Shown one piece after another: positions 2,116 to 62,795 of a stretch of 64,000 nucleotides of DNA (positions are counted from its first letter, which is position 1; every line of letters starts with the position of its first letter). The DNA comes from Forficula auricularia (taxonomy: Eukaryota; Arthropoda; Insecta; Dermaptera; Forficulidae), in the NCBI GenBank assembly GCA_024734495.1, contig JALMQS010000225.1, positions 12,119,573 through 12,183,572 of the forward strand, written 5' to 3'. The notes beneath the pieces are model-generated. The model was not told where the DNA came from. It worked only from the letters and a program-made list of their open reading frames with translations, and searched no databases. The translations under genes and the position numbers were made by a program.

Positions 2116-2643
2116 GAATTAGAATAAAATGAAAAATAATTTCACAGTGAGTTGATCAGCAAAATGGTATGCACCGGGTTAAATAAAACTCTCAGAATTA
2201 GACGTTTCGGCCTAAATTTTATTGGTCCTTCCTCAGTTAATGGGAATTGTAGACATTTTACATGGATGTTAGGCCAAAATTTAGGCCGATAACACTGCTC
2301 GACAAAAATTTCACCCCGTAAACCTTACAATGGATTCCAGTAGAGTTTTATACGCTGATTATCATGCAATTTCCCGATTTTTTACAACACGTCAGAGTTT
2401 TGAGATATTATCGGTCAAAATGAGAAAAAAAGGCTATTTCGACCTATTTTCGAGTCCCATTAAATATTAAACAGCAATATTTGAAATCAAAACAGCCTCC
2501 TCTTTGATTTTCAAATTACCACTTGTGTTTAGCTCAATTAGAACTCGAGTTATAACTAAAAAAATAAAACTACGTTATTATAAAATATAAAGGATAATAA
2601 ACCTTAGATAAAAACATAAGGTCTTAGATGTTTAGTTATAACT

Positions 2644-4727: not shown

Positions 4728-4803
4728 CAACGTTTCGTCGACTTATACTCGCTGAATAGCCCTGAAGAAGTCGGCAAAGTCGACGAAACGTTGGCTGAGA
4801 AAT
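4728..4803 (+). repeat. Small palindrome with hammerhead-like motif
   Basis: caacgtttcgtcgac at 4728-4742 is the exact inverse of gtcgacgaaacgttg at 4779-4793. The forward arm carries the motif at 4762-4795: CTGAAGA, one extra A, stem GTCGGC/GTCGAC (partly paired) with loop AAA, then GAAACGTT. Confidence 0.65.
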
Positions 4804-4899: not shown

Positions 4900-5127
4900 A
4901 TAAAAGAAATCACAGGAAATTGGGTAAAAAACAGGCAGTTTTTATTAAGCGGCGCAGACGTTTCGTCATTTATTTTGATTTCCTAAGTGTCTCTATATGA
5001 CAAACTGTTTTTGTCAAAGAGTGATAAAATCGGCCACTGAGGAAGTCAAAATAAATTGACGAAACGTCTGGTCCACTTAATAAAAACTCTTGTTTTAATC
5101 TATTCAATTTCCTGCGATTCCTTTTAT
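4900..5127. mobile_element. Foldback X1 with hammerhead-like motif
   Basis: The ends are inverted: ataaaagaaatcacagg and cctgcgattccttttat. Inner inverted blocks include agacgtttcgtca. The forward motif at 5037-5068 reads CTGAGGA, A, stem GTCAA...TTGAC, GAAACGTC. The reverse arm holds a degenerate partner near 4958-4990. No TSD was resolved. Confidence 0.7.
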
Positions 5128-5579: not shown

Positions 5580-5981
5580 AAATTTTTATAATTTTTCTAA
5601 CTGATATAACAAAGAATAATTGACCTATCAATGAGAAGTGTTTTGACCGCGCTTTATTTGAAAAAGATATTTTATCACAAGACTACTGCGGATTATGCTA
5701 TTAAAGTCTGTGGAGTCTTAAGTCTGGACCAAGAGACATTCGGATGGAGGTGATCCATCCGAATGTCTAGCGGGCTATACGCAAAATGACGTTGGATTGT
5801 AGCTAAATGGATCACATCTTTTTCTCTCTTGGTCCAGACTTAAGACTCCACAGACTTTAATAGCATAATCCGCAGTAGTCTTGTGATAAAATATCTTTTT
5901 CAAATAAAGCCCGGTCAAAACACTTCTCATTGATAGGTCAATTATTCTTTGTTATATCAGTTAGAAAAATTATAAAAATTT
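5580..5981. mobile_element. Foldback C, copy 1
   Basis: Arms of about 180 bases are near-perfect inverted copies, from aaatttttataatttttc on the left to its inverse at 5963-5981. They include ctgatataacaaagaat and gtcttaagtctggaccaag. The unpaired centre holds cattcggatgg and tagcgggctatacgc. A damaged copy sits inside the hAT at 36578-37235. Confidence 0.85.
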
Positions 5982-5997
5982 ATTTTAAGATCATTAT

Positions 5998-6543: not shown

Positions 6544-6666
6544 GTCTGAAAGCTTTCTTTTTACAACAGTGGGATTCGAACGCAAGGCCGATCAAGTAAG
6601 GAGATAAAAATCATCTTTAGTCGAAAAACGGCCGATTAAACAATGATAAATTATGTATGAAATATA

Positions 6667-7085
6667 TGTTGCAGTAAAAACCCGGTTTTTAATAAGAACG
6701 GGTTCTTACTAGTTAAAACGCGTTTCACTGAATACCTTTGTGCCAACTAGAATTTACTTAAGTTGGTTGAGTTTGGTTCAAAGGTCTAGAATCTTGATTT
6801 TTGATCTTCCGCCTCATTTTGAGTGTTTATTTCGGAAAAATTTTAAAACGAAATTTTCAAAAATTAGAAGCAATGTTGTAGAGGATGTAATTTGTGACAT
6901 TTTCGTTTAAAATTTTTTGAAAATAAACACCCAAAATGAGGCGGAAGGTCAAAAATCAAGATTCTGGACCTTTGAACCAAACTCAACCAACATCAGTAAA
7001 TTCTAGTTGCTATAAAGGTATTCCGTGAAATGCGTTATAACTAGTAAGAACCCGTTCTTACTAAAAACGGGGCTTTACTGCAACA
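6667..7085. mobile_element. Foldback B, copy 1
   Basis: The ends tgttgcagtaaaaaccc and ctttactgcaaca are flanked by TA. Almost the whole element is inverted on itself, including the blocks gttggttgagtttggttc and accttccgcctcatttt. It contains palindromic AGTAAGAACGGGTTCTTACT next to the ends. Further copies are at 12609-12888 and 31745-32122. TA flanks suggest a Tc1/mariner-type target, which is inference. Confidence 0.85.
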
Positions 7086-7242
7086 TATATTATATATAAT
7101 TATAAATATGTATAATTCTAAAATTTAACTTTATTTTTCTTACAATAATTTTTAAATCAATTTTTGTCACATAAAAAATAAATACCATATACCTATATGA
7201 CAAAAACTAATTTAAAAGTTTTGTAAAAATAATCTAGGTGTA

Positions 7243-8646: not shown

Positions 8647-9280
8647 CACTACTCAACAAAAATTTCACCCCGTAAACCTATCACTGGATTTCAGTAGAAT
8701 TTTATACGCTGACTATCATGCAATTTCCCCATTTTTTCCAACACGTCGGTGTTTTGAGATATTATCGGTCAAAACGACGAAAAATGCCATTTTGACCTAT
8801 TTTCGACCTCCATTAGATATTAAACAGCAATTTTTGAAATCAAAATATTTTGTGGACGTAATAGAAAACAGCTTCCTCTTTGATTTTCAAATCACCACTT
8901 GTTTTTAGCTCAATTAGAACTCGGATTATAACTAAAAAACTAAAACTCGTATTATAAAGGATATAAACAGAGATAAAAACATAAGGTCTTAGTTTTTTTA
9001 GATATATTTGGAGTTCTAATTGAGCTAAAAACAAGTGGTAATTTGAAGATCAAAGAGAAATCTGTTTTCTTTAGTCAACAAAATATTTTGATTTCAAATA
9101 TTGCTGTTTAATATTTAATGGGACTCGAAAATCGGTCAAAATGGCATATTTCATCGTTTTGACCGATAATATCTCAAAACTCTGACGTGTTGTAAAAAAT
9201 CGGGAAAATGCATGATAATCAGCGTATTAAACTCTACTGGAATCCATTGTTATGTTTACGGGGACAAATTTTTGTTTAAT
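8647..9280. mobile_element. Foldback A, copy 2
   Basis: It starts cactactcaacaaaaatttc after a TA and folds back on itself with arms of about 260 bases. The right end is eroded (gggacaaatttttgttt). Unlike copy 1 it has no hAT insertion at its centre. The open frames at 8840-9034 and 9227-9439 belong to its arms and to the LINE beside it. Confidence 0.8.
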
Positions 9281-9320: not shown

Positions 9321-10264
9321 ATCATCATCATTGAGTATACAGTCCTAAGACTGGTTTGATGCAACAATCCGTCTCCACTCGACTCTGTCCCCCGCCAGCT
9401 GTTTAACCTCTCTAAATGTCTGGCATCCCATATCCCCAATTATTTGGTTGAAATATTCTAATCTGGTTCTTCCCCTTCCCCTTTTCTTTCCCACCTCCCC
9501 CTCCAAGATATCCCTAAGCAGTCCCCCATGTCTCAGTGTGTGCCCCATCATCTGACCTCTTCTCTTCTTCAGACTCTTCCACAAGGTTCTTCTTTCTCCG
9601 ATTCTTCCAAGAACTTCTTCATTTGTAATTTTATCCATCCATTTGATATTCATCATTCTTCTGTAGCACGACATTTCGAAAGCCTCTAATCTCTTTCTCT
9701 CCGCTTCTCTAATTGTCCAGGTTTCACACCCGTACATGGCTATGCTCCATACATATGTCTTCAATAGCAACTTCCTGTTTGCTAAGCTGATTGAGGAGGA
9801 GCATAGTAGTTTTTGTTTTGAATTAAACCCCATTTTTGCTTGGGCAATTCTTGATTTAATTTCGTTTTCGCTCCTCCCATCCCATGTTATTTTACTTCCT
9901 AGGTAGCGGAATTCCTTAACTCCTTCTAGGTTTTCTTGGTTAATTTTGATGCATTCCTGTCTCGTTTGTTCTTTTTTTGTACATACTAGGACCTTGGTTT
10001 TATTCTTGTTTATTTTCATTTTGATTTCTTCTATTAGGATTTGGTTAATTCCATTCAAGGCGTCCTCTAATTCTTTTTTATTGCTTCCTAGAAGGGCAAT
10101 GTCATCGGCAAATCTTAACATAGCGATCTTTTGACCTTGGATTTCTATACCTGTATCAATTTTGTCTTTGAATTCTTTAATCGCTTCTTCTATGTATAAG
10201 TTGGAAAATCATGGGTGACAGCCACATCCTTGTCTTACACCTTTTTTTATTTTGGCTTCTTTGA
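9321..10264 (-). pseudogene. Non-LTR retrotransposon reverse transcriptase, 5'-truncated
   Basis: This is the best-preserved coding remnant in the window. On the minus strand it reads the RT motif GVRQGC (10224-10241), a segment with an in-frame TGA near 10210, then LRFADDIALLG (10099-10118) containing the FADD form of the catalytic YxDD box. The 258-codon open stretch continues through FRYLGSKITWDG, LYGCETW-type AMYGCETWTI, a GKKRGRGRTR basic block and the C-terminal VEWRRIVASNQS. The stop falls at 9345. The 3' end has a short untranslated region ending in a TCA/TGA trinucleotide tail (9321-9335). The domain order is that of CR1/RTE/Jockey-type LINEs; the clade is not settled. The N-terminal RT, endonuclease and any ORF1 are missing by 5' truncation. 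The TSD is unclear (aaaaatat-like). Related pieces lie at 13581-14022 and 51472-51600. Confidence 0.92.
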
Positions 10265-10873: not shown

Positions 10874-11153
10874 ATACATCTTGGTTAATCTGAACCCGAG
10901 CTGATTTTTTGAAAAAACTACTAACTATTTTCAAAAAAAGATGCTCAAAACTTTAATTATACATGTGTATTAAAAATTTAAAAAATTAGATGATAAATCA
11001 TCTATGCATTAGTAGTAATGGAAATTCGTTCTTTATTGGGGACTACGTTTTTTTTGTAGCTGAGAGGGCGTTAAGAAACCTGAGCAAAGGGTTGCAAGTG
11101 TTTGTTTGTGTGTCGGGTGGTTGTCGTCGGGGTCGTTGGGGTCGGTGACAAAC

Positions 11154-11453
11154 CTTGTTTTCGGGGTCGGAGCCGGCGGCGGTGGCGGCGGTGACTGCCT
11201 CCCTTTCGTTGGCCCTCTTCGCCATGGCTTCCTTGATCGCACTGGGGGTGGGTCCTATAGAGGTGACGCTCGTGCCATTTGTAGCCGAGGACGGGGTCGG
11301 TGCTACCCCCGACGATGCCGTCGCCGGGTTGGATGAAGGGGGAGTCCCCGTCGATGAAATGGGGGTTGTGGCGGCCCCGTTACTACCCCCGCCCCCACCA
11401 CCACCTGGAGATGGCAATTCACTCTTGAAGAACAACTCGCGTTTGGACTGCAG
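11154..11453 (-). CDS. Candidate internal exon, Gly/Ser/Thr/Pro/Ala-rich protein, unknown function
   Basis: I do not recognise the product. On the minus strand a pyrimidine-rich tract and TTTTTAG acceptor precede CTGCAGTCC, and a donor AACAAG|GTTTGT follows 300 bases later, giving exactly 100 codons in phase. In-frame TAG lies in the acceptor, so the frame cannot extend upstream without splicing. The start reads LQSKRELFFKSELPSPG, followed by seven glycines. A low-complexity Ser/Thr/Pro/Ala/Gly stretch with about 60 residues follows, then a charged, probably helical segment IKEAMAKRANEREA, ending SDPENK. The block is strikingly GC-rich in an AT-rich window, typical of constrained coding DNA. 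The composition suggests a linker in a larger regulatory or scaffold protein. The antisense frame (11155-11457 plus) is also open but lacks splice support and is poly-proline and alanine by mirror effect. A GC-rich non-coding island is the alternative. Confidence 0.5.
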
Positions 11454-19735: not shown

Positions 19736-19796
19736 AGCGAGTGACAGACTATTCCACTGAATCAAAATAGAAAGCTAACATAACAACCCAGATTAA

Positions 19797-20002
19797 GGGC
19801 CAGTTGTATGTCGGTTGGTAAACTCTTTTTAAACGTTGACAAAGGGTAAACCTTAAAATTCACATTGTGCCCGGTGGGATGGCCAATCAGATGAAAGTGC
19901 ACTGTCATCTGATTGGCCAACCCATCAGGCACAAGGTGAATTTTAAGGTTTTACCCTTTGTCAACGTTTAAAAAGAGTTTACCAAACACATACAGCTGGC
20001 CC
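19797..20002. mobile_element. TAA-flanked MITE, family O copy 2
   Basis: 206 bases, almost fully palindromic, from gggccagttgtatgtcgg to its inverse ending agctggccc. The TSD TAA is at 19794-19796 and 20003-20005. The inner block ggccaatcagatgaaagtgc is shared with the other two O loci. Likely PIF/Harbinger-type. Confidence 0.88.
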
Positions 20003-20005
20003 TAA

Positions 20006-22331: not shown

Positions 22332-22995
22332 CAGAAGTAGCCAACCTGCGGCTCGTGAGCCACATGCGGCTCTCAATATAGATTTCAAGACTTGAAATAT
22401 TTTAAATCGTCTCTAGATTTTTTTCTGAATCCATTTGAAATTAACATACTTCAAGGTGAGTTTTCCATTTCCAGTATAATTATGACCCAAAAAGCATCTG
22501 GAGAATTATAATTAATAGAAGAAGATCAAGCTCTACAATTAAAATATAAGTCGACGTCGATTACCGAATTTTGGAAATTTGTACCAGAATCGATGTATCC
22601 TGAATTAAAAAAGGGTGCTTGTCGAATTATTTCAATATTCGGAACAACGTACTTATGTGAATCATTTTATTCCACTTTAAAATTCGTGAAATCCAAACAC
22701 CGATCAGTATTAACTAACCAGCATCTCAAAGAATTACTTAGAAGTGCTGTCACCAATTATTCACCAAATTTTAAAGAATTATCAAGAGAAGTGAAATAAA
22801 TGTGTTTAATTTTTTTTTAATATTCAATACACATATTTTGTACTTTTATTATGTTTTCAATAAATATAATTTCTGTAAAAAATATTTTTTAATATCTTCT
22901 TTGCATACCTTTTAAATACGTATTTAATTGCGGCTCGCGAAACATTTCAAATTTTGAAAAATGGCTCGGACTATCAAGTAGCTTGGCCACCCCTG
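22332..22995. mobile_element. hAT element with transposase remnant
   Basis: Ends cagaagtagccaacc and ggccacccctg form the inverted terminal repeat. The 8-base TSD ctatatac is perfect (22324-22331 and 22996-23003). The subterminal ggctcgtgagcc and gcggctcgcg blocks are typical of Charlie-like hAT relatives. At 664 bases it is an internal deletion product that kept only the 3' part of the transposase gene. Confidence 0.92.
22478..22799 (+). pseudogene. hAT transposase C-terminal dimerisation domain
   Basis: After a stop near 22506 the frame reads LIEEDQALQLKYKS, then ITEFWKFVPES, YPELKKGACRIISIFGTTYL, CESFYSTLKFVKSKHRSVLT and HLKELLRSAVTNYSPNFKEL before the stop at 22797-22799. This matches the end of hAT transposases of the GTF2IRD2/ZBED type. 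The FW..., YP.L...A..ll..FGsTYlCEs.FS.mk..Ks..Rs.Lt..hl ... LR series is the hallmark of the C-terminal dimerisation region. The zinc finger and catalytic core are missing, so it cannot act alone. The domestication alternative is unlikely because intact transposon ends and a TSD surround it. Confidence 0.88.
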
Positions 22996-24198: not shown

Positions 24199-24698
24199 GG
24201 TAGTTCTTTCACAAAAGCGAAAATTCAAGAAGTCTTTGAAATATACTGTTAAAATTTGAAGACGATTTACCACACCAAACATGAAATAATTGCAATTAAA
24301 AATGACATTTTTAACATAGGGTAGATAGGGAAAGGGTGGGGATATGACCATTATTTTATTTTTTTTCATTGAAGGACTTTCACCATCTTGATGAAAAACT
24401 AATATTTGTTAGAATAATATATTCGGAATAACTTAAAAAAAAAATAGAAATTACTTACCACGTAGTTTTGATAAAAAACAAAAAAAAACATTTTTGGTCG
24501 ATTATTTTTAGTGGAGGGGATATAAGCACAATGGCTTGGAAACGATCCTGCTAGTATGTGTGTAGCCATATACATATTTCGTAGTGTGAGTGGACAGTCA
24601 CGTTAAAAAAACATAACCTAAAATTTTAGTTCCGTTCATATTTATAGAGTGGTTACGAGGCTAAAACTGTGTGTGTGGATTGTCGCGAATGAACCTCC
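24199..24698. mobile_element. TTAA-flanked element M, copy 1
   Basis: Starts ggtagttctttcac after TTAA (24195-24198) and ends gaatgaacctcc before TTAA (24699-24702). It is the inverse of M2 at 26155-26681, sharing gggtggggatatgacc, aaagtccttcaatg-type and ttagttccgttcatattt blocks. TTAA targets are used by piggyBac and Kolobok elements; I cannot choose. Its ends resemble those of family F at 41900 and 59641. Confidence 0.8.
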
Positions 24699-24728
24699 TT
24701 AAAAGCACGTGGTTGATAACTATAGGCA

Positions 24729-25044
24729 AGGTAAAGAAAATTTTGAAAAATTTTAGAAACTTTTTAAAATTTTAAATATAAAATACTAGTTAGGTTTCAC
24801 AAAAATAAAAGATCAGATGCTTGTTCAGCACGACTCTATATATATTTCGGGGTATAAGCCCACTGTGTCCTTTGTGAACTCCTGAAAATGGGCTTATACC
24901 CCGAAATATATATATAGTCGTGCTAAACAACCATCTGATCTTTTATTTTTGTGAAACCCACCTAGTATTTTATATTTTAAATTTTAAAAAGTTTCTTTAC
25001 TTTATTTAAAATGTTTCAAACCCACCCTATTCTCCATTAACAAA
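24729..25044. mobile_element. Palindromic element J2 with hammerhead-like motif
   Basis: Arms begin aggtaaagaaaattttg and are repeated inverted ending gtttctttac, with aaaagatcagatg and gtgctaaac-type inner blocks. The centre holds the forward motif at 24882-24908: CTGAAAA, T, stem GGGctTATaCCCC, GAAATAT. A one-sided tail of about 40 bases follows on the right (atgtttcaaacccacc). Flanks gataactataggca (24715-24728) and gataacctataggca (25045-25059) form a TSD with one indel. Confidence 0.75.
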
Positions 25045-25059
25045 GATAACCTATAGGCA

Positions 25060-26150: not shown

Positions 26151-26154
26151 TTAA

Positions 26155-26681
26155 GGAGGTTCTTTCGCGACAATCCACACAAAAAGTTTTAGCCTCGTAA
26201 CCACTCTATAAATATGAACGGAACTAAAATTTTAGGTTATGTTTCTTTAACGTGACTGTCCAATCACACTACGAAATCTCTATATGGATACACACATACT
26301 AGCCGGATCGTTTCCAAGCATTTGTGCTTATATCCCCTCCACTAAAAATAATCGCCCAAATATTGTTTGTTTTTTTTATCAAAAGTAAGAGGTAAATAAT
26401 TTCAATTTTTTTTTTTTAGTTACTCCGAATATATTATTCTAACAAATATTAGTTTTTCATCAAGATGGTGAAAGTCCTTCAATGAAAAAATAAAATAATG
26501 ATCATATCCCCACCCTTTCCCAATCTACCCTATGTAAAAAATGTAATTTTTAATTGCAATTATTTCATGTTTGGTGTGGTAAATCGTCTTCAAATTTTAA
26601 CAGTTGTGTATTATGCTTTTAATGACTTATATTCGAAGTTTCAAAAACTTCTTGAATTTTTGCATTTGTGAAAGAACTACC
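26155..26681. mobile_element. TTAA-flanked element M, copy 2 (inverted)
   Basis: TTAA (26151-26154) then ggaggttctttcgcg; ends gtgaaagaactacc then TTAA (26682-26685). It runs opposite to copy 1 at 24199-24698 and has a 27-base extra piece near 26605-26640. Together the pair form a 2.5 kb inverted duplication. Confidence 0.8.
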
Positions 26682-26729
26682 TTAAAGCTGTTCGGGGTAT
26701 TGCAAAAATAACTAAAATTGCGAAGTTTG

Positions 26730-26882
26730 AAAGCTTCTTTTTGTCGAGAGTAGCAGAATTTTTATATTATAAATTAAAGGAGACAATAAATGACTGTGTC
26801 TTCAAACCCCTCGAAACTATAGTCCCTTTATAAATAAATTAAAAATTTATTTTTCCAGCAGAAAACACACTCTTTTATTGTA
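26730..26882. repeat. Family I fragment
   Basis: It keeps the one-sided tail gtcgagagtagcagaattt, one arm and a half motif (CCCTCGAAACTATAGTCCC at 26806-26824). It ends with the inverse arm cacactcttttattgta. The centre is deleted relative to 29797-30154. Confidence 0.65.
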
Positions 26883-27535: not shown

Positions 27536-27662
27536 ATATGTGTGAGCCTCATCCACATAAGCTCACGGGGGATGTTAAACTTATTTAGCCGTAGATGTTA
27601 TTAATAAATAATAGAGATTGTGATGTTGGTGCAAGGTGAAACATCTTTAATAAAGATAAAAG

Positions 27663-27955
27663 AGTAAAGGGTGTGTAGTTTCACAGTGAATGAAATAAAA
27701 CTCAAAAGAGGTTTATACAAACTCAATATATTTCGGATTATTAGTCCATCATCAGGAGTTTACAAGTTAAATCAGTATTAACTTATAAACTCCTGATGAT
27801 GGACTAATAATCCGAAATATATTGAGTTTGTATAAACCTCTTTGAGTTTTATTTCATTCACTGTGAAACTACACACCCTTTACTCTATTAACTAACATCA
27901 TGTTTCACCTAAAACCTACACCACTTTCCATAAGTAAAAAAAAAAAAAATAAAAA
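27663..27955. mobile_element. Palindromic element J1 with hammerhead-like motif
   Basis: Arms agtaaagggtgtgtagtttc and aaactcaatatatttcgg are repeated inverted. Both orientations of the motif are present: forward at 27793-27820 (CTGATGA, T, GGActaataaTCC, GAAATAT) and reverse at 27726-27756. A tail of about 65 bases follows the right arm only (atgtttcacctaaaacctac, then an A-rich end). The TSD aataaagataaaag is perfect over 14 bases (27649-27662 and 27956-27969). Confidence 0.88.
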
Positions 27956-28511: not shown

Positions 28512-28540
28512 CTGAAGATGAGCTTACAGCTCGAAATATA
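28512..28540 (+). ncRNA. Hammerhead-like hairpin motif in Penelope-like arm
   Basis: CTGAAGA, T, stem GAGCttacaGCTC, then GAAATATATA. The stem is a perfect 4-base pairing with a 4-5 base loop. The TA-flanked MITE at 28543 inserted directly after it. Confidence 0.5.
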
Positions 28541-28542
28541 TA

Positions 28543-29784: not shown

Positions 29785-29796
29785 AATAGATACTAT

Positions 29797-30154
29797 TAAA
29801 TTGAAAGTTTTTGCCGAGAGTAGCAGAATTTTTATATATTGAAGGAGACAATAAAAGAGTGTGTCTTCTGTTGGAATTATAAATTTTATTTATTTATAAC
29901 GAGACTATAGTTTCGAGGGCTTTGCCCTCTTCATCAGTCTATTACAATGGATTCACAGGAATTAATTTATGAATGAAAGGTTAACATCTTAATCTAACCA
30001 CATGAAAGATGTTAACCTTTCATTCATAAATTAATTCCTGTGAATACATTTTAATAGAGTGATGAAGAGGGCAAAGCCCTCTAAACTATAGTCTCGTTAT
30101 AAATAAATAAAATTTATAATTCCAGAAGAAGACACACTCTTTATTGTCTCCTTC
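29797..30154. mobile_element. Palindromic element I1 with hammerhead-like motif
   Basis: Arms contain gaaggagacaataaaagag, gacgagactatag-type and ttaattcctgtgaat blocks, repeated inverted. The reverse motif at 29903-29937 is intact (minus strand CTGATGA, A, GAGGGCaaaGCCCTC, GAAAC, TATA, GTC). The forward partner at 30058-30093 is mutated (GTGATGA ... TAAAC). A one-sided left tail carries gccgagagtagcagaattt. The TSD aatagatactat is perfect over 12 bases (29785-29796 and 30155-30166). Confidence 0.88.
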
Positions 30155-30240
30155 AATAGATACTATGTTTAATAAGATTTTCAAAGAGCTACCAGTAACA
30201 CTATTATTATATATCAAGTTTCTATATTTATGGTAATATA

Positions 30241-31744: not shown

Positions 31745-32122
31745 TGATGCAGTAAAAACCCGTTTTTAGTAAGGAAGCGTTTTTAGTAGTTAAAACGCGT
31801 TTCGCTGAATACCTTTATGGCAACTAGAGTTTATTGATGTTGGTTGAGTTTGGTTCAAAGGTCTAGAATCTTCATTTTTGACCTTCCGCTCATTTCGTGT
31901 AGTTATTTTCAAAAAATTTTAAACGAAAATGTCAAAAATTAGAAGAAAAGTTGTAAAGGATGTAATTTATGACATTTTCGTTTAAAATTTTTTGAAAATA
32001 AACACACGAAATGAGTCGGAAGGTCAAAAATGAAGATTCTAGACCTTTGAACCAAACTCAACCAACATCAGTAAACTCTAGTTGCCACAAAAGTATTCAG
32101 TGAAACGCGTTTTAACTGCAAC
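31745..32122. mobile_element. Foldback B, copy 3
   Basis: Starts tgatgcagtaaaaaccc and ends ttttaactgcaaca, with arms inverted over about 170 bases and the centre aaaaattagaagaaaag as in copies 1 and 2. Confidence 0.85.
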
Positions 32123-33382: not shown

Positions 33383-33393
33383 AAAATAAAAAT

Positions 33394-33825
33394 GTTATTT
33401 TATTTATTTTCTTAGAAAGACGGGCTGGTAAGCGAAATAAGTAGGTTATAATGAAAGGCATTCCATAAATTATTTAAATTTTATTCAATTTTTGACGTTT
33501 CGGAGACTTTTTCTCTCCTTCTTCAGAGTATTGAATAGTTATTGATGGGTGAGTATAACTCGGTTCCCATTTGTCTCTTCTTTCAGTGATAGAAACAATA
33601 TTACAATATTTTACAACATTATACCATAAATGATAATCAAGTACACTTATGGTATAATGTTGGAAAATATTGTAATATTGTTGCTATCACTGAAATGAGA
33701 TACAAATGGGAACCGAGTTATACTCACCCATCAATAACTATTCAATACCCAGAAGAAGGTGAGAAAAAAAGTCTCCGAAACGTCAGAAATTGAATAAAAT
33801 TTAAATAATTTATGAAATGCCTTTC
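33394..33825. mobile_element. Palindromic element G1 with hammerhead-like motif
   Basis: Inverted arms run from gaaaggcattccataaat through the motif to gtataactcggttccc and beyond. The minus-strand motif at 33494-33526 and forward copy at 33749-33785 read CTGAAGA-like, A, GGaGAg...gTCTCC, GAAACGTC. A one-sided left tail (cttagaaagacgggctgg ... agtaggttata) has no inverse partner. The TSD aaaataaaaat is at 33383-33393 and 33826-33836. Confidence 0.82.
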
Positions 33826-34077
33826 AAAATAAAAATATAAAATCCAATAAAATATATAAAAGTTCAAGTTAAGTTTTCTCAGTATTTTAAATTCACAAAT
33901 ATATTTTTAATTCTGTATCAGATTGGGAGCTTGAGAACGTTTTGGTCTTGGAAAATTGTCACTTTAGCTGTTAAAGATACAGCGAGCGACTTGACTACAT
34001 TTGATTGTGGAATTTCGACATTACAAAAATTTAGATAGATTAAAAAACTATGTAGGTACCTAATTAAAAAATAATTA

Positions 34078-34337
34078 AATTGAAAGTATTTGTGTCGAGA
34101 GTAGCAGAATTTTTATATATTGAAGGAGACAATAAAAGAGTGTGTCTTCTGCTGGAATTATAAATTTTATTTATTTATAACGAGACTATATTTAGACTCA
34201 TAACCAAAATTAATTCCTGTGGATCAATTGTAATAGACTGATGAAGAGGGCAAAGCCCTCGAAACTATAGTCTCGTTATAAATAAATAAAATTTATAATT
34301 CCAGCAGAAGACATACTCTTTTATTGTCTCCTTCAAT
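34078..34337. mobile_element. Palindromic element I3 with intact hammerhead-like motif
   Basis: Same arms and left tail as I1, shorter centre. The forward motif at 34238-34272 is the cleanest in the window: CTGATGA, A, GAGGGC AAA GCCCTC, GAAAC, TATA, GTC. The left-arm partner is mostly deleted. The TSD aaaaaataatta is perfect over 12 bases (34066-34077 and 34338-34349). Confidence 0.88.
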
Positions 34338-34349
34338 AAAAAATAATTA

Positions 34350-39129: not shown

Positions 39130-39455
39130 AAGTATAGCTGATTTGGCAATGTTTTATCAGCAAAGGCTTTGAGATAGAATATTGGTACAATAGGTGCAAA
39201 TTATTAATAAGTCGAATTTTAGCTAATTAGCTATAATCGTTAAAGAATTCCTAAATAAACATTCATTGGACTTATAATTCCACAAAATCTGAGAATATTT
39301 TCGTTTTAGAAATACAAACATTTCGATACTAGAACGAACTTCCTATGGAATTCCGTTCTTAACTTATCATTGCTATTAGAATCCAAAAAAGACGAAAAAA
39401 AATTATGACTGAAAATAATTTTTCTCTTCGTTTCAGGCATTTCTAAGTACAAATG
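39130..39455. repeat. Old dispersed repeat Q
   Basis: Contains gctgatttggcaatg, gtcgaattttagctaa, aatacaaacatttcg and aaattatgactgaaaataa blocks found in order at 23100-23270 and 52790-52930. Confidence 0.5.
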
Positions 39456-39520
39456 ATTAATGAAGAGAAACAAAGAGGTTATCCTCTGCTTGATGCAAAT
39501 AAACATACACACATATTTAT
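39455..39520. repeat. Family P fragment
   Basis: The aagagaaacaaagaggttat then cctctgcttgatgcaaat segment matches an arm of the foldback at 40693-40832. Confidence 0.5.
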
Positions 39521-39561
39521 CAAAAATATAAATCTGTATATATTATTATTTATTTGTTTGA

Positions 39562-39596
39562 GACTATAGTTTCGAAGGATTGGCCTTCATCATCAG
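39562..39596 (-). ncRNA. Solitary hammerhead-like motif
   Basis: Minus strand: CTGATGA, T, GAAGGcca..CCTTC, GAAAC, TATA, GTC. No inverted partner arm is visible, so this may be a solo terminal repeat of a Penelope-like element. Confidence 0.5.
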
Positions 39597-39599
39597 TCT

Positions 39600-40692
39600 T
39601 TTTTTAATTAAAAATATTATTTTTCATGGGGTCAGTATCGCATAGATATTGAAAGTTTTTTCATCTTTACTTACCCAAGAGCCAGTTAGAATTACAAATT
39701 ATTAAAAAAATTATTATATTTGAGTGAGTTCAATACTTATTATTACTCTGGTCACCTGAGCTTGACTCCTAAAATATTAACTGAATCACTCATTTTTCGG
39801 GTAGTTTCGGCAATACGAGGGCGGGGTTCACGAAAAAATGTTTATTAAATTATGGGATTTTTCTAAAATCTTCGGAAATAGTTAATAGTTTTGTGTTGTT
39901 GAGTGGAGTTCAGTTCAGTTCGTCAACTCGTCAGTGTCCATTAATTTTTGAATTTATCTTATGGTAAAAACAGTACAAGAGAAAAGCAGAAATTATTAAA
40001 GGAAACCATTTTTCTAGCATGCAACTATCATTAAATGAAAGGTAAATACGATAAGAATAGAGAGAAAACCAAAACACTATCAATTAAATAGAAATCACAA
40101 GTTTAAACCAGGATTTTGGTTATATTTTTCTGTTCCTACTGCGGGTGGATATCTTCTATCCAAATGATTTAAATACGGGCTGCGATCTTATTCCCTATCG
40201 CCACCCACTTTTATTTTTTAACTATTTAAAAATAATACTAATCATAATAATTCACTATTTACATAGAAAAGCAATAAAATTAGAGAAAATATGGCTAAAG
40301 ATGTGAAAGTTTAGTGTTGAAATTGATAGATTTATCTAGGATAAAAATGGATGTCTTTAGTATGTACAATTGTACAAGGTACCCACCCAGTACATATACA
40401 TCCTACCAGCCCTATTAATGGACAAGTGCAACTGCTTTAGAAAGTAATACATCAAATTTATTATATAATAAAATCACACAAACAGGGTATAATAAATATA
40501 AGTTTATTTAATTTAACGATGTTATAATTTTTTATTATTTGTTTTATTAGTACTATTAAAAAGCGATATTTCGGCTCTAAATAAGCCTTTTAAAGTGTTG
40601 AAAGATACAACGAGAAGCGCGAGTGTCAGTGAGTCATAATTTGTTCCCATGTACAATTGTACAGGGAATCAGGGATAGGAAGATCAGTGATA
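39600..40692. other. No supported gene; one degenerate motif
   Basis: A minus-strand motif-like hairpin at 40563-40595 has stem GGCT...AGCC followed by GAAATATCG, but the CTGAnGA box is not present. The palindrome acaattgt recurs at 40368 and 40651 next to gtacaaggtac and gtacaggg. Confidence 0.35.
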
Positions 40693-40832
40693 CATAAAGA
40701 GAAATCAATGAGGTTGTTCTCTGCTTTATGCAAATAAACATATACATACTAGTATTTATATTTTGTAAATATAATATATATGTATGTTTATCTGCATCAA
40801 GCAGAGGACAATCTCATTGAATTCTCTTTATG
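40693..40832. mobile_element. Family P foldback, complete
   Basis: Arms cataaagagaaatcaatgag and tgtatgtttatctgcatc pair inverted, ending ttctctttatg. It is 140 bases with an AT-rich centre. Fragments are at 420, 1521 and 39455. Confidence 0.8.
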
Positions 40833-41895
40833 AATCAACAACTCTGCTATTATGGGTCAAATTTTGTAAAGTAAAAAGGGAAAATATTTTTTATCATGGG
40901 GTGGAAACTTCTCTTTAAAAATGATTTGGATTTTTTTTAACTTATCGTATTTAGCTTTAAAATAATGGTGTGAGAGGGTCAGAAAATGGCCATTTTAAGG
41001 TAATTTTTGTACCTGTCAGCGTTTAAAATTAAGTAGAAAATTCACAAATTACCTCATTCTTTTGATGTCTAAAATATTTTGAAAGTTATATAAGTTACTG
41101 AAGCCTCGGTATGTGGTCCGGTTCACACTTGAATGGGTTATTGTTATTTTATTTTTGTTGAGTCTTTGGTGGTCAGAATAATAGTTTGGAAGAATATTTC
41201 ATGGTGAAATCGAAAAATTTGTATTGTATTTTATGGAAAAAATATGAGAAAATGTTAATTAATTTTTAGTTCCGCCATGGGTGGCCTAACCAGGAATATT
41301 ACTGATTATCATATATATTTTTTTTATTTACAATTCATTTATTTTCAATGCTTCTAGATAAGCTTTGTAAATAATAATAATAAATTTGATTCAAATTTAG
41401 ATTTTGAAGCAAATTTTTTTATTTTCTATTTGAAACATCATTACATCATATGAAAAAAGTTATTTATTTTGGGGGATTTTGAACAAATGAAGCTTTAGTG
41501 GTAGTTACTTCATGAACCTGAAATTCGAGCGCTTTATTGGTTTTAATGTCGCGATGATTGATCATCCCCCATTCCTCAGATTAGTTTTTTATTAAAAACT
41601 CCGATTAATTTTTCTTCCTTCATTATTAATTTTCACTTTTATGAATCAGAAATTACAATACTTCACCATATCCCGTATGGTAAAGTAAAAAATTTCGGTC
41701 GAAATTGGTTATCACAGAAATTCGACATTTTCCAAAATATATATTAATTTATATGAAAAATAATTTCAAGTCTATGTTACAAGGCATATTAAGGTATTTG
41801 TTACTCGGTACGCCCGGGGGGCAGGCGGAACTGCTGCCTGGAGATGTTCTGACCTCATGATTAAATAGAAATATTGTATATAGACAGTTTTTGAT
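40833..41895. repeat. Old dispersed repeat and AT-rich DNA
   Basis: 40965-41150 matches 19540-19735. 41806-41845 holds the ctcggtacgcccgg then ggcaggcgg block found near the ends of Q-type repeats. No gene seen. Confidence 0.45.
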
Positions 41896-43584: not shown

Positions 43585-43619
43585 GACTATAGTTTCGAAC
43601 AATTGACCTTCATCATCAG
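43585..43619 (-). ncRNA. Solitary hammerhead-like motif, stem eroded
   Basis: Minus strand: CTGATGA, T, GAAGGTCaattgTTC, GAAAC, TATA, GTC. Boxes are intact but the stem is reduced to about three pairs. Confidence 0.45.
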
Positions 43620-44639: not shown

Positions 44640-44870
44640 GTGTCTTTCTACAAGTTTCAGCTTATAATATATATTTTAAGCACCTATATTTAAGACAGTT
44701 TTTTGTAAATTCTGATGATGGACTAAAAACCCGAAATATATAGAGTATCTCCGGTAAACTCAAACTTTATTTCAATTTTTATTTTGTGAAACACCACTAA
44801 TTCCAACCCTTTGTAATTTTTTAAATATGTTTCACTGTAAACCTACACTGCTTTCCCTAGATGTCCCCTA
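44640..44870 (+). repeat. J-type terminal repeat with hammerhead-like motif
   Basis: The forward motif at 44712-44740 reads CTGATGA, T, GGActaaaaaCCC, GAAATATA. It is followed by a tail atgtttcactgtaaacctac then actgctttccc, which matches the one-sided tail of J1 (27900-27935). The inverted partner arm is absent. Confidence 0.6.
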
Positions 44871-49350: not shown

Positions 49351-49385
49351 GACTATAGTTTCGAAGGCATAGCCTTCATCATCAG
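49351..49385 (-). ncRNA. Solitary hammerhead-like motif, good stem
   Basis: Minus strand: CTGATGA, T, GAAGGC tat GCCTTC, GAAAC, TATA, GTC. The stem is perfect over six pairs. No partner arm is visible, so this may be a solo terminal repeat. Confidence 0.55.
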
Positions 49386-54860: not shown

Positions 54861-55029
54861 AAAGAGAGTGTAGCTGGTAATCGAAAATCCAATTATAGAG
54901 TCTTATTTAATAATGATCACAAAATAACATAACTACACCTTTTTCCATGTTTATATTTCAAAAAACCCGAATTGTGTTTCAGAATATGTCAATTGTTTAG
55001 TAAGTTGTTTATATGTAGCATATATTTAA

Positions 55030-55298
55030 TTTTATTTATTCCCTTAGAAAGATGGACTGGTAAGCGAAATAAGTAGGTTATAATGAAAGGCAGTCCATAC
55101 ATTTATTTACTTTTATTCAATTTCCGACGTTTCGGAGACTTTTTCTCTCCTTCTTCAGGTTACTGAATAGTTATTGATGGGTGAGTATAACTCGGTTCCC
55201 ATCAATAACTATTCAATACCCTGAAGAAGGAGAGAAAAAAGTCTCCGAAACGTTGGAAATTGAATAAAAGTAAATAAATTTATGGACTGCCGTTCATT
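55030..55298. mobile_element. Palindromic element G2 with hammerhead-like motif
   Basis: A shorter copy of G1: left tail cttagaaagatggactgg, then arms gaaaggcagtccat and tatggactgccgttc. Motif on minus at 55126-55158 and forward at 55221-55254: CTGAAGA, A, GGAGA...gTCTCC, GAAACGTT. The centre is gtataactcggttccc. TSD unresolved. Confidence 0.82.
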
Positions 55299-57720
55299 TT
55301 AACCTGCTTATGTACCATATATGTTTATTTTCTGAAATACAAGTGGGGTTTTCAGAAATTAAAATTGGAAAAGATGTACCTTTTATTTGTAATAAAATTG
55401 GAGGGAAAAATGAAAACTTTATCCATGATTAGGTAACGCTTTAAGCAAATTTTAGTCATTTGACAATTTTTTTTGTCAGAAAAGTTGAAATTTGGTTCAG
55501 AAGTGTAGTTAACAGGTCGAATAACGCTTTCAGCAAATTTCAGTGATTTGGTAATTTTTTGTCATCAAACTGTTTGATATAAAAAAGTTTATAAACTTGG
55601 TTCAGAAGTGGAGTTAACAAGTCCAATAGGGCGCTAAAAACAATTAGGGGAAAGAGAGATGCAGCCTTTTTACCGGAGAGTAGAGAATATAAAGTGATCA
55701 AGGATTATGTAGATCTCTGTGCACCCGGGTTTTTATGGATCGAAGATTTTTGGGAAAGATGAAGGAAGAGAGAGTGTTTCAGTTTCTTGAAGTTTCTCAT
55801 ATTAACCGTATTTGCGAATAAAATAGTTCGGCACTTTTTTTAATCTTTGTTTTTATTAAGTTTACTATCACAGCTCAAGAATGACATCGTATTAGTAAAA
55901 TATTAAACAAATTGGAAATTGTGTTGTTTATAATTAAATTATCATTATGCATATTCATAGAAGGATGGTGGAATATATTATCTGCAGATAAGCGCCTTAG
56001 TGATAGGCGACTGAACAAACGCACATATCGTTCATTTGCTAAAATAACGTCATAACTAAAAAAAATAGTGATTTTTAAGTTAAAGGTAATTAATACTATG
56101 GTTAGGTTACGTCACGCAAAAAGGATCTTAAAAATTGTGATGTCACAAAAGTCAAATTTAAAAATTTTCAAAGGTATTTTTTAGATTTCAGGTTATTATT
56201 ATTCAAAACTGAAAATGTTGGTAAAAAAAATTTAGACAAAAAATTGTAAGCAAGCAATTTTTAGCAAAAATACTAGTGTGAAGTTACAATAAAGGGGGGC
56301 TCAATGAAAATGTGAAAGGGGAGAGGGGGGTCTAAAAATCTTGAAATTTGTGTGAAGTAATTTATGGGCGGCCCATTATAGGTGAAACATTTTAAAAATG
56401 AAAGGAAATGGTAATTTTATTGCTTTAAATGGTAAAAACATTTTGAAAACTCGGTATTTTGGCAATGTGTGTATGGTTTGAGCAGAGTTTAAAATTTACC
56501 CAAAGGTGTAGCTTATTAAAAGATTGATACAGTCATATGAGTCGAATTTCAGCTTAATTGATTCAACTGTTTAAGAGTTACGAAGAGTTCTGAAGCAAGA
56601 AAGGCATCTATTGAAAATGGTCTTTTGGAAATTGTTTTAAGTAAGGATATTGTTTTAGAAAATAAGCAATCACAATTAATTCATCCAGGTAGAAAAGAGT
56701 AGTTTTTCTAATCATATAATAAGACTAAGTCATTATTTAGTTGAAAATATAGGTGAGAATATGTGGAAATATTTGCAAAGGATAATATTATCTCATGAAT
56801 AAGGACAGATGTATAATTGCAAGGATATATATATCAAGGAAAGATTAAAGAGACAGGGGTGAATTAAATGTATCAAGTGTCAAATAGCCCAAGAGAGAGA
56901 GAGAGAGAGAGAGAGAAATAATTTCCTTAGTCGAGCGAATGATGGGCCTTAATGAATTCCAGCCCACATGGAGATATAGGCAAATGACTCCCACTGACTT
57001 CAATTAATCGTTTAATTGGGATTGGTAATTGAAGACTCATTTCACACACTTTTGGCATCATCTTGAGAGAAAACTTTATTGATCGCAGTGGCGGATTGTG
57101 GAAAGGATGAGGGTGTGAGTTTTCAACCAAAAAAAACACACCTTAGATCCTTTTTAAGTGAGGTGAAGTGCAGTCTCCTTTACCTTATCTGAGAAGCCGC
57201 CACTGATTGATTGCCGTTAATAATTTTATAAGAGATAAAGATGATGAGTGGTGTGAGTAAAAGAGGGTAAAAGAATTTGGAATATCGCTGGAAAGAAAGA
57301 AGGAAGGAAGGAAGGAGGAAGGTGAATTTAATTAAACCAGACCACCTTGATGTTATTCATTCTAATAATTATAGACGATTAAAAGGTGAACAGAGGAGGG
57401 TCATGGATCGATGGAGGCTTTTTAATTAAAATATTCCCTTGACTAAAATAATTAATGGGATTTTAAACGAATATATTGTGATCCAATTTCCAACATCAAT
57501 CGAATTTAAAATCTTTTCTTTTTAACCACAATATTGTCGGCGATCAAGTATAAGTCACTAAGTCCAAAAATTCCGATTTCGAGTTATATATCACAGTGTC
57601 ATCTCCAATCAAATTAATGCTCACAGTCTAGAAAATACTCACTAGCTCCAATGAATTTCGTTTGCAAAGCAACAGAGAATTTACCTACTAAGTCCTGTAG
57701 TCAGTTATGTGGACAGGTAG
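55299..57720. repeat. Q fragments, LINE-like scrap, simple repeats; no gene
   Basis: 55395-55625 and 56440-56600 are Q-type. 55640-55850 on the minus strand retains RTILFANT and a degraded LKHSLFLHLS-like segment that parallels the LINE end at 42536-42884. An (AG)n tract is at 56895-56917 and a GAAG tract at 57293-57318. The minus frame 56927-57139 has no domain. Confidence 0.45.
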
Positions 57721-57730
57721 AAATTACTAA

Positions 57731-57935
57731 GGACGAGTTGTATATCGGTTTGTAAAGTCTTTGTTAAGTTAACAGGTGGTCAAATCTTAGTATTCACCAA
57801 GTGCCGGGCCGGGTAGCCAATCAGATGACACGCACTTTCATCTGATTGGCCATCCGACCGAGCACATGGTGAATACTAAGATTTGACCGTCTGTTAACTT
57901 AACAAAGACTTTACAAACCGATATACAACTGGCCC
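57731..57935. mobile_element. TAA-flanked MITE, family O copy 3
   Basis: 205 bases, near-complete palindrome from ggacgagttgtatatcgg to ccgatatacaactggccc, with TAA at 57728-57730 and 57936-57938. Shares gccaatcagatga with the other O copies. Confidence 0.87.
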
Positions 57936-58251
57936 TAAGTGGTTTTAGTGATTTTCAGCAGATTTCATGAGTTAAATATAATTTTTACTATCTTTCATAA
58001 CGAGTCAAAAGTTTATAAATTGACTGTACCCATTTCAAAATTATAGTTTTAGATTTAGTGACTTTTGTTTAAACGCTAACAATATATTAATTTTTAAGAT
58101 ATTTTATTCAACGAAGAAGAATCAGTGAGATATAATAATTATTTTCCTCACAAGACAACAGCTAATCTATTATATGCCAAACTCTACGATCATATCAAAT
58201 AACATCACAAGAGGGCGTCATCTATTAGAACCGAGATGAAATGGTTTATTT

Positions 58252-60951: not shown

Positions 60952-61566
60952 GGCAAAAATTAAACAGAAATTTATAACCGTAAACCTAACAATGGATTCG
61001 AGTAGAGTTTTATACGATGATTATCATGCAATTTCCCGATTTTTTATAACAGGTAAGAGTTTTGAGAGATTATCGGTCAAAATGACGAAAAAGGCCATTT
61101 TCAACTATTTTCGAGTTCCTTTAGATATTAAACAGCAATTTAATTTGGAATCAAAATATTTTGTTGACGTAATAGAAAACAGCTTCCTCTTTGATTTTCA
61201 AATTACCACTTGTTTTTAGGTCAATTAGAACTCGAGTTATAAACTACGTGATTATAAAGGATAAACAACATATGGTCTTAGTTTTTTAGTTATAACTCGG
61301 GTTCTAATTGACCCAAAAACAAGTGGTATTTTGAAAATCAAAGAGGAAGCTGTTTTCTATTACGTCAACAAAATATTTAGATTCCAAATCTTGCTGTTTA
61401 ATATTTAATGGGACTCGAAAATAGGTCAAAATGGAATTTTTCGTCATTTTGGCCGATAATATCTCCAAACTCTGCCCTGTTGTAAAAAATCGGGAAATGA
61501 CATGATAATCAGCGTATAAAACTCTACTGGAATCCATTGTTAGGTTTACGGTTAAAAATTTTTGCC
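60952..61566. mobile_element. Foldback A, copy 3
   Basis: The ends here are ggcaaaaatt and aatttttgcc, altered from the other two copies. Arms of about 260 bases contain atcatgcaatttccc and tttgttgacgtaatag in both orientations. The open frames 60992-61219 and 61304-61537 are the two arms read in opposite directions and encode near-identical chance peptides. Confidence 0.85.
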
Positions 61567-62467: not shown

Positions 62468-62481
62468 AGTGATAATAATGT

Positions 62482-62795
62482 AATTGGATGTTGATGAAGG
62501 CAGTCCATGGTGGTTGTAAAAAATAAGACTATAATGGTTTTATTGTTTTACATTTATTTGTTAAAACCGACGTTTCGGAGATTTATTCTCTCCTTCTTCA
62601 GGGTAACAAAAAGTCAATGAAAGTAGCTGTTACCCTGAAGAAGGAGAGAATAAATCTCCGAAACGTCGGTTTTAACAGATAAATGTAAAACAATAAAACC
62701 ATTATAGTCTTATTTTTACAACCACCGTGGACTGCCTTCATCAACATCCAATTACATATTTATACCAGTCCGTCTCCTAAAGAAAAACGCTATCA
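62482..62795. mobile_element. Palindromic element H with hammerhead-like motif
   Basis: Arms of about 115 bases (taattggatgttgatgaagg ... aaaccgacgtttcggag) are almost perfect inverses. Motif on minus at 62569-62601 and forward at 62635-62667: CTGAAGA, A, GGAGA...TCTCC, GAAACGTC. A right-hand tail of about 40 bases (ataccagtccgtctcctaa) has no inverse. It resembles the inverse of the G tail. The TSD agtgataataatgt is perfect over 14 bases (62468-62481 and 62796-62809). Confidence 0.92.

What the first reader, a model, noticed from the sequence alone, without database searches (positions are those of the whole stretch)
34238..34272. Recurrent hammerhead-ribozyme-like hairpin (CTGAnGA-n-stem-GAAAC...GTC) at about twenty sites
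Seen directly: sites 2201-2236(-), 4762-4795, 5037-5068, 24882-24908, 27793-27820, 28512-28540, 29903-29937(-), 33494-33526(-), 34238-34272, 39562-39596(-), 43585-43619(-), 44712-44740, 49351-49385(-), 55126-55158(-), 55221-55254, 62569-62601(-), 62635-62667, plus degenerate ones at 40563, 43053, 48906, 50438 and 52334. All have box CTGAnGA, one extra base, a hairpin whose stem sequence changes while pairing is kept, then GAAAC or GAAAT. Several continue as TATA-GTC or directly GTC. Established: hammerhead cores are CUGANGA, helix II, GAAA, and a cleavage site often GUC. The extra base before helix II departs from the textbook core. Compensatory stem changes across families point to RNA-level selection.
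Basis: partly seen in the sequence, partly recalled or inferred. Interest (0 to 1): 0.9.

Follow-up and report, generated by a model that had tools for sequence, protein, structure and literature searches.

The report
Penelope retrotransposon hammerheads in foldback elements
The repeated hairpins are small hammerhead-type RNA motifs carried by short, coding-free copies of Penelope retrotransposons, and the way those copies are built (two units head to head, each with a different kind of end) gives clues to how these little-understood jumping genes insert themselves.

Summary
Box CTGANGA + one extra base + stem + GAAA occurs 13 times with a stem of at least 4 bp against 0.09 expected, only with exactly one extra base. 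Stem II covaries. In 17 of 17 intact sites the bases after GAA are self-complementary (ACGT, ATATAT, ACTATAGT) and the cleavage-site base is never G, as expected of stem-III-less hammerheads that work as dimers. The same 1.06-Gb genome holds autonomous Penelope-like elements (RT + GIY-YIG ORF) flanked by this hammerhead, extra base included. Ten of the 17 sites lie in ORF-less foldbacks of two head-to-head units; five such elements have target-site duplications and a one-sided tail. Of 30 genome copies of the 34238 family, 19 are two-armed; 17 pair one short end with one long end, none has two alike, two are unclear. This resembles the two reverse-transcription start sites published for an anole Penelope element (PMC11167929). 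So: a known kind of ribozyme in a known kind of element; the extra base has a viroid precedent. Added here: the short/long rule and the foldback anatomy. Self-cleavage is untested.

The parts
34238..34272 (+). Minimal hammerhead, family A: CTGATGA + A + GAGGGC/GCCCTC + GAAA, stem III ACTATAGT, predicted cut after 34272
   Evidence: E=9.7e-10
34078..34336 (.). Foldback element A2: two head-to-head units. Left arm has the long (tail) end and starts inside the hammerhead; right arm has the short end
   Evidence: as L132
34065..34077 (.). Target-site duplication TAAAAAATAATTA; second copy 34337-34349
34103..34153 (-). AC-rich stem-loop AGCAGAA [37 nt] TTCTGCT in A2 left arm; the short end of sister arms falls in this loop (read by eye)
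   Evidence: 2 of 60 shuffles as good
29797..30154 (.). Foldback element A1: tail on the left; hammerheads 29903-29937(-) and a decayed one at 30051-30099(+); TSD AATAGATACTAT at 29785-29796 and 30155-30166
26727..26881 (.). Family A remnant: both arms 5'-truncated; right arm starts in stem II
   Evidence: read by eye
33394..33825 (.). Foldback element B1: tail on the left; hammerheads 33494-33526(-) and decayed 33742-33794(+); TSD AAAATAAAAAT at 33383-33393 and 33826-33836
55026..55308 (.). Foldback element B2: tail on the left; hammerheads 55126-55158(-) and 55221-55254(+); TSD TATGTA[G/C]CATATAT at 55012-55025 and 55309-55322
55052..55098 (-). Stem-loop ATGGACTG [31 nt] CAGTCCAT of B2 left arm
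   Evidence: 3 of 60 shuffles as good
62482..62795 (.). Foldback element C: tail on the right; hammerheads 62569-62601(-) and 62635-62667(+); TSD AGTGATAATAATGT at 62468-62481 and 62796-62809
62727..62773 (+). Stem-loop GTGGACTG [31 nt] CAGTCCGT of element C
   Evidence: 4 of 60 shuffles as good
24729..25050 (.). Decayed foldback element D: hammerhead relic 24874-24918(+), G8 changed; short direct repeat CTATAGGCA at 24720-24728 and 25051-25059 (score 9, weak)
27725..27823 (.). Head-to-head hammerhead pair, family E: 27755(-) and 27793(+), stem III ATATAT, at least 6 bp in stem I; no clear TSD found
27863..27908 (+). Stem-loop GTGAAAC [32 nt] GTTTCAC of family E right arm (left-arm equivalent 27636-27684, minus strand)
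   Evidence: 8 of 60 and 5 of 60 shuffles as good
39562..39596 (-). Hammerhead of the group carried by the autonomous elements in L092-L101 (CTGATGA + T + GAAGG.. + GAAACTATAGTC)
49351..49385 (-). Hammerhead of the same ACTATAGTC group
43585..43619 (-). Hammerhead of the same group, stem I not paired at the cut (decayed)
44712..44742 (+). Family E2 hammerhead, followed by stem-loop GTGAAACA [34 nt] TGTTTCAC at 44786-44835
   Evidence: 4 of 60 shuffles as good
28512..28542 (+). Hammerhead whose 3' side appears to run into another repeat
4762..4792 (+). Hammerhead family F (5-bp stem I), with an inverted partner truncated inside stem II just upstream
5037..5068 (+). Hammerhead family G (5-bp stem I) in palindrome 4896-5132; no clear TSD found
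2201..2236 (-). Hammerhead family H, weak stems I and II
   Evidence: E=1.5e-5

Best explanation
The sites are minimal type I hammerheads (no real stem III, one extra base between A9 and stem II) belonging to Penelope-like retrotransposons. In this window they sit largely in short ORF-less derivatives: a pLTR-like unit of leader, hammerhead, spacer, an AC-rich stem-loop and a tail, often present as two units head to head. Shown: the motif, stem II covariation, target-site duplications, one-sided tails, head-to-head order, and the same hammerhead beside RT + GIY-YIG ORFs of the same genome. Inferred: the units are mobilised in trans by the autonomous protein, which nicks both DNA strands; one nick primes reverse transcription in the loop of the stem-loop (short end) and the other in the tail (long end), probably on two RNA molecules, and the two cDNAs meet at their 5' ends to give the foldback. 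Also inferred: the hammerhead acts in RNA as a dimer, because its stem III stretch is self-complementary, and would process tandem transcripts. Genomic 5' ends do not show that cleavage is needed for insertion.
For: Motif and controls; covariation; self-complementary stem III and H17 not G in 17 of 17. Autonomous elements: GIY-YIG matches with open frames up to 864 aa (150 of 3423 candidates scored); RVT_1 + GIY-YIG in 2 of 2 ORFs scanned. Ten regions with long frames were fetched (L092/L093 overlap, so nine places); 9 of 9 have a hammerhead with one extra base in the orientation of the ORF, on both sides of it in 4 (L092, L094, L097, L098) and only downstream in 5. A second lineage (L079, L080, L087) has a different hammerhead, also with one extra base. 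The tandem array at C563 ends short on one side and long on the other, with an 11-bp repeat AAATATATTTA at both flanks. Family A and the autonomous element share the stem-loop sequence with a paired change (AGCAGAA/TTCTGCT against AGCAGAG/CTCTGCT) and a similar tail (by eye). Family A: 17 of 19 two-armed copies short+long, 0 alike, 2 unclear; TSD score 12 or more in 17 of 30, null 1.4%. Family C: 26 of 29 two-armed copies short+long, 1 long+long, 2 unclear (read from the table; main arms were long by selection). Published anole element: extension on both strands, two internal start sites, AC-rich stem-loop, optional tail (PMC11167929, main-text section read).
Against: No cleavage or expression data. 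Rfam finds no hammerhead at gathering score nor up to E=10. Stem I has 2 or more contiguous pairs in only 12 of 17 sites and 3 or more in 7 of 17. None of 12 truncated arms starts at the predicted cut. The stem-loop tests are marginal one by one (2 to 8 of 60 shuffles as good), the named stem is not recovered for A1, B1 and D, and in the autonomous unit another, AT-rich stem scores higher (20 against 18 by my score). Inverted repeats are common here anyway: 45 of 200 random window positions have one within 70 bp, against 12 of 17 hammerhead sites. The extra base is not universal in the genome: some copies have lost it. A long transcript of a foldback would pair the ribozyme with its own antisense arm. 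PMC11167929 reports no difference in start site between strands in vitro, which does not predict the short/long rule. The two-template step is not proven: arm concordance 0.73 against 0.65 permuted, 12.5% of permutations as high, 3 informative columns.
Confidence: 0.9

Rival explanations
1. The foldbacks arise by self-priming: a nascent cDNA folds back and copies itself, or an antisense RNA primes itself, as proposed for rotifer Penelope elements.
For: Head-to-head palindromes are common in rotifer Penelope and were read as self-priming (PMC3846280, passages). Arms of one element are slightly, not significantly, more concordant than permuted pairs.
Against: Inner junctions differ from copy to copy (12 truncated arms start at 11 different places). 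Both outer ends sit near defined places, one short and one long, often with TSDs; copying back from one end does not predict this. In 4 of 4 two-armed copies with T at unit column 120 in one arm, the other arm has C, though the query itself has T there, which favours such arms.
Confidence: 0.2
2. The hairpin is a protein-binding or reverse-transcriptase-stop signal that keeps a hammerhead-like shape, with no relevant self-cleavage in vivo.
For: In PMC11167929 hammerhead mutants did not change insertion in vitro and no RNA ends were found at the cut. No truncated arm starts at the cut; 3 of 12 start within 3 nt of the 3' base of stem II (bin chosen after seeing the data).
Against: Catalytic-core positions, H17 not G and the self-complementary stem III are kept across about six lineages; pure binding would not obviously need them. 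PMC11167929 saw protein-assisted cleavage in vitro.
Confidence: 0.25
3. Ordinary MITE-like DNA transposons with long terminal inverted repeats that happen to carry the hairpin.
For: Long palindromes, small size, TSDs; other palindromes of the window look MITE-like.
Against: Extra tail on one side only, 5'-truncated inner arms, copies without a detected second arm (11 of 30 by my criteria), tail and stem-loop sequence shared with an RT + GIY-YIG element.
Confidence: 0.03
4. Animal retrozymes: tandem type I hammerhead repeats that spread through circular RNA.
For: Type I hammerheads in small non-coding repeats expressed as RNAs of about 170-400 nt (PMC7229834, abstract and passages).
Against: Window copies are head to head or single, not tandem; stem III is missing; ends match Penelope tails.
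Confidence: 0.03

Closest known systems
Minimal type I hammerheads of Penelope-like elements (Cervera & de la Pena 2014; Lunse, Weinberg & Breaker 2017)
   Same: Type I order, intact core, no stem III, expected to act as dimers, in pLTRs and dispersed in animal non-coding DNA (PMC7761336 passages; PMC6155905 passages).
   Different: All 17 intact window sites have one extra base before stem II. Whether the published consensus has it could not be checked: neither paper is held; only their titles were seen, in reference lists.
Poseidon/Penelope element PAc of Anolis carolinensis (PMC11167929)
   Same: Hammerhead with stems I and II, internal reverse-transcription start in an AC-rich stem-loop, optional tail between two start sites, extension on both DNA strands. 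Its start codon follows G8 and lies at the start of stem II, which would fit an extra base there too (my inference).
   Different: Here the first ATG of the ORF lies 231 nt downstream of the hammerhead box (frame open from 138 nt), and many copies have no ORF and are head-to-head units.
Penelope elements of Adineta vaga (PMC3846280)
   Same: Inverted pLTRs, TSDs of 8-10 bp, tail of 31 bp optionally on one of the inverted pLTRs, pLTR sequences sufficient in trans (passages).
   Different: Here the inverted pLTR-like pair alone is the element; the authors favoured self-priming.
Plus-strand hammerhead of chrysanthemum chlorotic mottle viroid
   Same: One extra A between A9 and G10.1; changing it to U raised, to C or G greatly lowered, trans-cleavage (PMC3705267 passages). 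Window sites have A (10) or T (7), never C or G, in DNA that is 68% A+T.
   Different: A viroid. The genome of the window also holds extra-C and extra-G copies.
Short nonautonomous Penelope elements of Heliconius butterflies (PMC6685494)
   Same: Short Penelope derivatives (two passages seen, one mentions them).
   Different: No structure or ribozyme described in the passages seen.

Membership tests
Hammerhead ribozyme (type I) | Core CUGANGA, GAAA, U16.1 and H17 (not G) | tested here: met
   17 of 17 intact sites (box and GAAA were part of the selection, U16.1 and H17 were not); 24882 has G8 changed
Hammerhead ribozyme (type I) | Stem II with covariation | tested here: met
   93.3% of cells paired, 12 cells with both sides changed, shuffles 2.8
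Hammerhead ribozyme (type I) | Stem II begins directly after A9 | tested here: not met
   Exactly one extra base in 17 of 17; precedent in a viroid
Hammerhead ribozyme (type I) | Stem I pairs across the cut | tested here: inconclusive
   2 or more contiguous pairs in 12 of 17, 3 or more in 7 of 17
Hammerhead ribozyme (type I) | Stem III in the monomer | tested here: not met
   Only a self-complementary stretch of 4-8 bases; dimer form expected
Hammerhead ribozyme (type I) | Self-cleavage | not testable with these tools
   needs transcripts
Rfam hammerhead families | Score above gathering cut-off | tested here: not met
   0 matches; no hammerhead up to E=10
Penelope-like element (autonomous partner in the genome) | One ORF with RT and GIY-YIG endonuclease | tested here: met
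   2 of 2 ORFs scanned; relatives
Penelope-like element (window copies) | Encodes the ORF | tested here: not met
   Elements of 259-432 bp without a long open frame: non-autonomous derivatives
Penelope-like element (window copies) | Short TSD and one-sided tail | tested here: met
   TSD score 11 or more in 5 of 8 hammerhead-bearing palindromes against 1 of 14 others (null); 17 of 30 family A copies with score 12 or more
Penelope-like element (window copies) | Inverted, head-to-head pLTR units | tested here: met
   19 of 30 family A copies two-armed; 21 of 30 other loci with an inverted partner, 19 of these head to head; background for any inverted repeat 45 of 200
Retrozyme | Tandem direct hammerhead monomers | tested here: not met
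   window copies inverted or single

The most novel reading that the evidence does not exclude
Penelope insertion obeys a strict two-end rule. Each new two-armed copy is built from two independent target-primed reverse transcriptions, one on each DNA strand and on separate RNA molecules. One starts in the loop of the AC-rich stem-loop and the other in the tail, which gives the one-sided tail and head-to-head foldbacks without self-priming. A hammerhead with an extra base, working as a dimer, marks the 5' part of the template.
Probability: 0.5. Interest if true: 0.65.

Novelty: new member of a known kind. Interest (0 to 1): 0.5.

Why it matters
A review says that thousands of minimal hammerheads are dispersed in animal non-coding DNA with unknown role (PMC7761336 passages). 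Here many of them resolve into discrete foldback elements with ends, target duplications and an autonomous partner in the same genome. How Penelope elements make head-to-head copies is open (self-priming or priming on both strands). The short/long rule and the variable inner junctions are quantitative predictions that the published in vitro system could test directly.

Tried and rejected
Rejected: chance; MITE origin and retrozymes (see rivals); microRNA precursors suggested by weak Rfam hits, all below their gathering scores, several of which lie on the palindromes. Viral contigs: 76 stretches match a hammerhead-like pattern; 5 of 76 have a stem of 4 bp or more at any insert length; with the custom model the best E was 0.012. 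Taken as chance.

Within/between arm identity (0.960 against 0.966, 16 pairs) cannot separate one from two templates if copies descend star-like from one source, so I tested informative columns instead; inconclusive. The stem-loop was not the best long-loop stem in the autonomous unit.

Genome-wide count of the extra A/T form with GAAACGTC: not completed. So the extra-base spectrum is incomplete: extra G or no extra base 533 (reversed control 1), extra C 61 (control 0). Of 32 match strings picked by eye from the part of the list shown, the best stem register was +1 in 16, 0 in 9, +2 in 4, none in 3: forms without the extra base do occur.

Host: not named. RT-fragment relatives include Sipha, Cinara and Diaphorina, suggesting a hemipteran-like insect; inference only. 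Dimer energies did not discriminate.

Full report
What was checked. Asking for a stem of at least 4 contiguous pairs leaves 13 sites, all with exactly one base between CTGANGA and the stem, none with 0, 2 or 3; shuffles gave 0.09 at insert length 1, and 179 permuted boxes gave at most 1. A covariance model built from 17 intact sites, which include 27755(-) but not 24882, recovers these plus 33742(+), 30051(+) and 24874(+).

What the motif is. Stem II changes on both sides while staying paired (rows are related, so the shuffle test flatters). The bases from A15.1 onward are self-complementary in 17 of 17 (ACGT, ATATAT or ACTATAGT) and are followed by C, T or A, never G. That is the H17 rule of hammerheads and the arrangement expected if two copies share a stem III. 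Stem I is good in some lineages (5 or more pairs at 4762, 5037, 27793) and poor in others; 12 of 17 have at least two contiguous pairs and 7 of 17 at least three. Rfam's hammerhead models do not fire. Reviews describe minimal type I hammerheads in Penelope-like elements and dispersed through animal genomes (PMC6155905 passages; PMC7761336 passages; PMC7229834 passages). The two primary papers (2014, 2017) are not held, so I could not check whether their consensus has the extra base. An extra A at this place is documented for a viroid hammerhead, where U was better and C or G bad (PMC3705267 passages). The 17 window sites have A (10) or T (7).

The link to Penelope. The window lies in a 1.06-Gb genome. 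A GIY-YIG search there gave 150 scored matches of 3423 candidates, with open frames up to 864 aa. Two ORFs scanned have RVT_1 and GIY-YIG; the protein search lists 110 relatives, named ones from insects, a springtail, frogs, a fish, flukes and rotifers. Ten regions with long frames were fetched (L092 and L093 overlap, so nine places). In 9 of 9 the hammerhead 'aaaga-CTGATGA-T-GAAGACCAAGTCTTC-GAAACTATAGTC', with one extra base, lies in the orientation of the ORF: on both sides of it in 4, only downstream in 5. This is the group of the window's 39562-39596(-). A second GIY-YIG lineage (L079, L080, L087) has another hammerhead, also with one extra base. Of the 15 GIY-YIG loci L077-L091, ten show a hammerhead with a stem of 4 bp or more and five do not.

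Element anatomy. Large palindromes are common in the window, and 45 of 200 random positions have an inverted repeat within 70 bp; of the 17 hammerhead sites 12 do, one of them (28512) because of another repeat. Ten of the 17 sites lie in palindromes that they share with an inverted unit, and 4762 has a truncated inverted partner. I examined 22 palindromic intervals for direct repeats at their flanks: a score of 11 or more in 5 of 8 with a hammerhead and in 1 of 14 without (14630, low complexity); random flank pairs reach 11 in 2.7% and 12 in 0.8%. Each of those five elements (A1, A2, B1, B2, C) has about 40-60 extra bp on one side only. Downstream of the hammerhead lies a stem with a 31-37-nt AC-rich loop in A2, B2, C, E and E2 (2 to 8 of 60 shuffles as good). 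It is not recovered in A1, B1 and D. The autonomous unit reads AGCAGAG[34 nt]CTCTGCT where family A has AGCAGAA[37 nt]TTCTGCT, followed by similar tails (by eye); but a different, AT-rich stem scores higher there. By eye, the short ends of A1, A2, B1, B2, C and the array lie inside that loop and the long ends beyond it. In the autonomous unit the short end is 131 nt from the start of stem II. In the anole element PAc, reverse transcription starts in an AC-rich stem-loop 111-118 bp into the ORF, the optional tail is the stretch between two start sites, and both DNA strands are cut and extended (PMC11167929, main-text section read).

Genome-wide tests. Family A (query 34207-34345): 1761 candidates, 40 scored, 30 loci read, one of them the window copy. 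19 of 30 are two-armed: 17 short+long, none alike, 2 unclear. In 11 no partner met my filter (90% identity, inner ends within 60 bp; 6 short, 5 long); at least L134 has a more diverged partner. If ends were independent, 17 of 17 has probability 7.6e-6. TSD score 12 or more: 17 of 30, null 1.4%. Twelve arms are truncated at their inner end, at 11 different positions, none within 2 nt of the predicted cut, 3 within 3 nt of the 3' base of stem II (that bin was chosen after seeing the data). Family C: of 40 scored places 29 are two-armed in the table; 26 short+long, 1 long+long, 2 unclear. The query contained the tail, so one arm was long by selection. An independent set, the first 30 loci of the extra-G pattern: 21 have an inverted partner, 19 of 21 head to head, TSD score 12 or more in 10 of 21 against 3.1% null; L113 and L114 are the same element. 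The tandem autonomous array at C563 ends short on one side and long on the other with an 11-bp repeat at both flanks.

Mechanism. The best reading is a Penelope system: autonomous protein, template RNA with hammerhead and start stem-loop, target nicks on both strands, one start in the loop and one in the tail, cDNAs meeting head to head. Variable inner junctions and the short/long rule speak against self-priming, which was proposed for rotifer elements (PMC3846280 passages). The direct test for two RNA templates is inconclusive. Of 17 family A target duplications oriented with the short end on the right (two two-armed copies left out), 7 have AATAAA within their first 8 bases and 5 more begin TAAAA or ATAAAA. 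The primer on that side would then end in TTATT or similar, in line with the ATT cut reported for PAc.

Novelty. The ribozyme kind and the element kind are known, and short nonautonomous Penelope elements have been mentioned in butterflies (PMC6685494, passages). The listings of my searches of the held library showed no title or abstract on hammerhead foldbacks or a short/long rule; the tail on one of two inverted pLTRs is already described as optional in PMC3846280. Most subscription papers are not held. What is added here is the anatomy, the rule and its numbers.

Noticed in passing
9345-10208 (-): 287-aa reverse-transcriptase fragment (RVT_1); named relatives include aphid and psyllid proteins.
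   Followed up: partly
22512-22799 (+): Fragment of a hAT transposase dimerisation domain.
   Followed up: no
5579-5982, 6649-7101, 8655-9276, 31788-32117, 60963-61564: Large palindromes of 330-620 bp without intact hammerheads and without clear target duplications; other foldback families.
   Followed up: partly
19796-20003 and 57726-57940: Two related MITE-like palindromes with similar ends (AGGGCCAGTTGTAT / ACTAAGGACGAGTTGTAT).
   Followed up: no
40688-40837 with 39454-39556: Palindrome whose arm resembles the sequence downstream of the 39596(-) hammerhead; possibly the same Penelope family without its hammerhead.
   Followed up: no
24245-24702 and 26151-26604: Inverted pair of about 459 bp, 93% identical, 1448 bp apart.
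   Followed up: no
11043-11453 (-): 136-aa open frame rich in Gly, Ser, Pro and Ala, no Pfam match; possibly a host exon.
   Followed up: no
L090: 2016 and 2531 (+): The autonomous-type hammerhead and a family A hammerhead lie 515 bp apart in the same orientation near a GIY-YIG match, perhaps an intermediate between autonomous and short forms.
   Followed up: no
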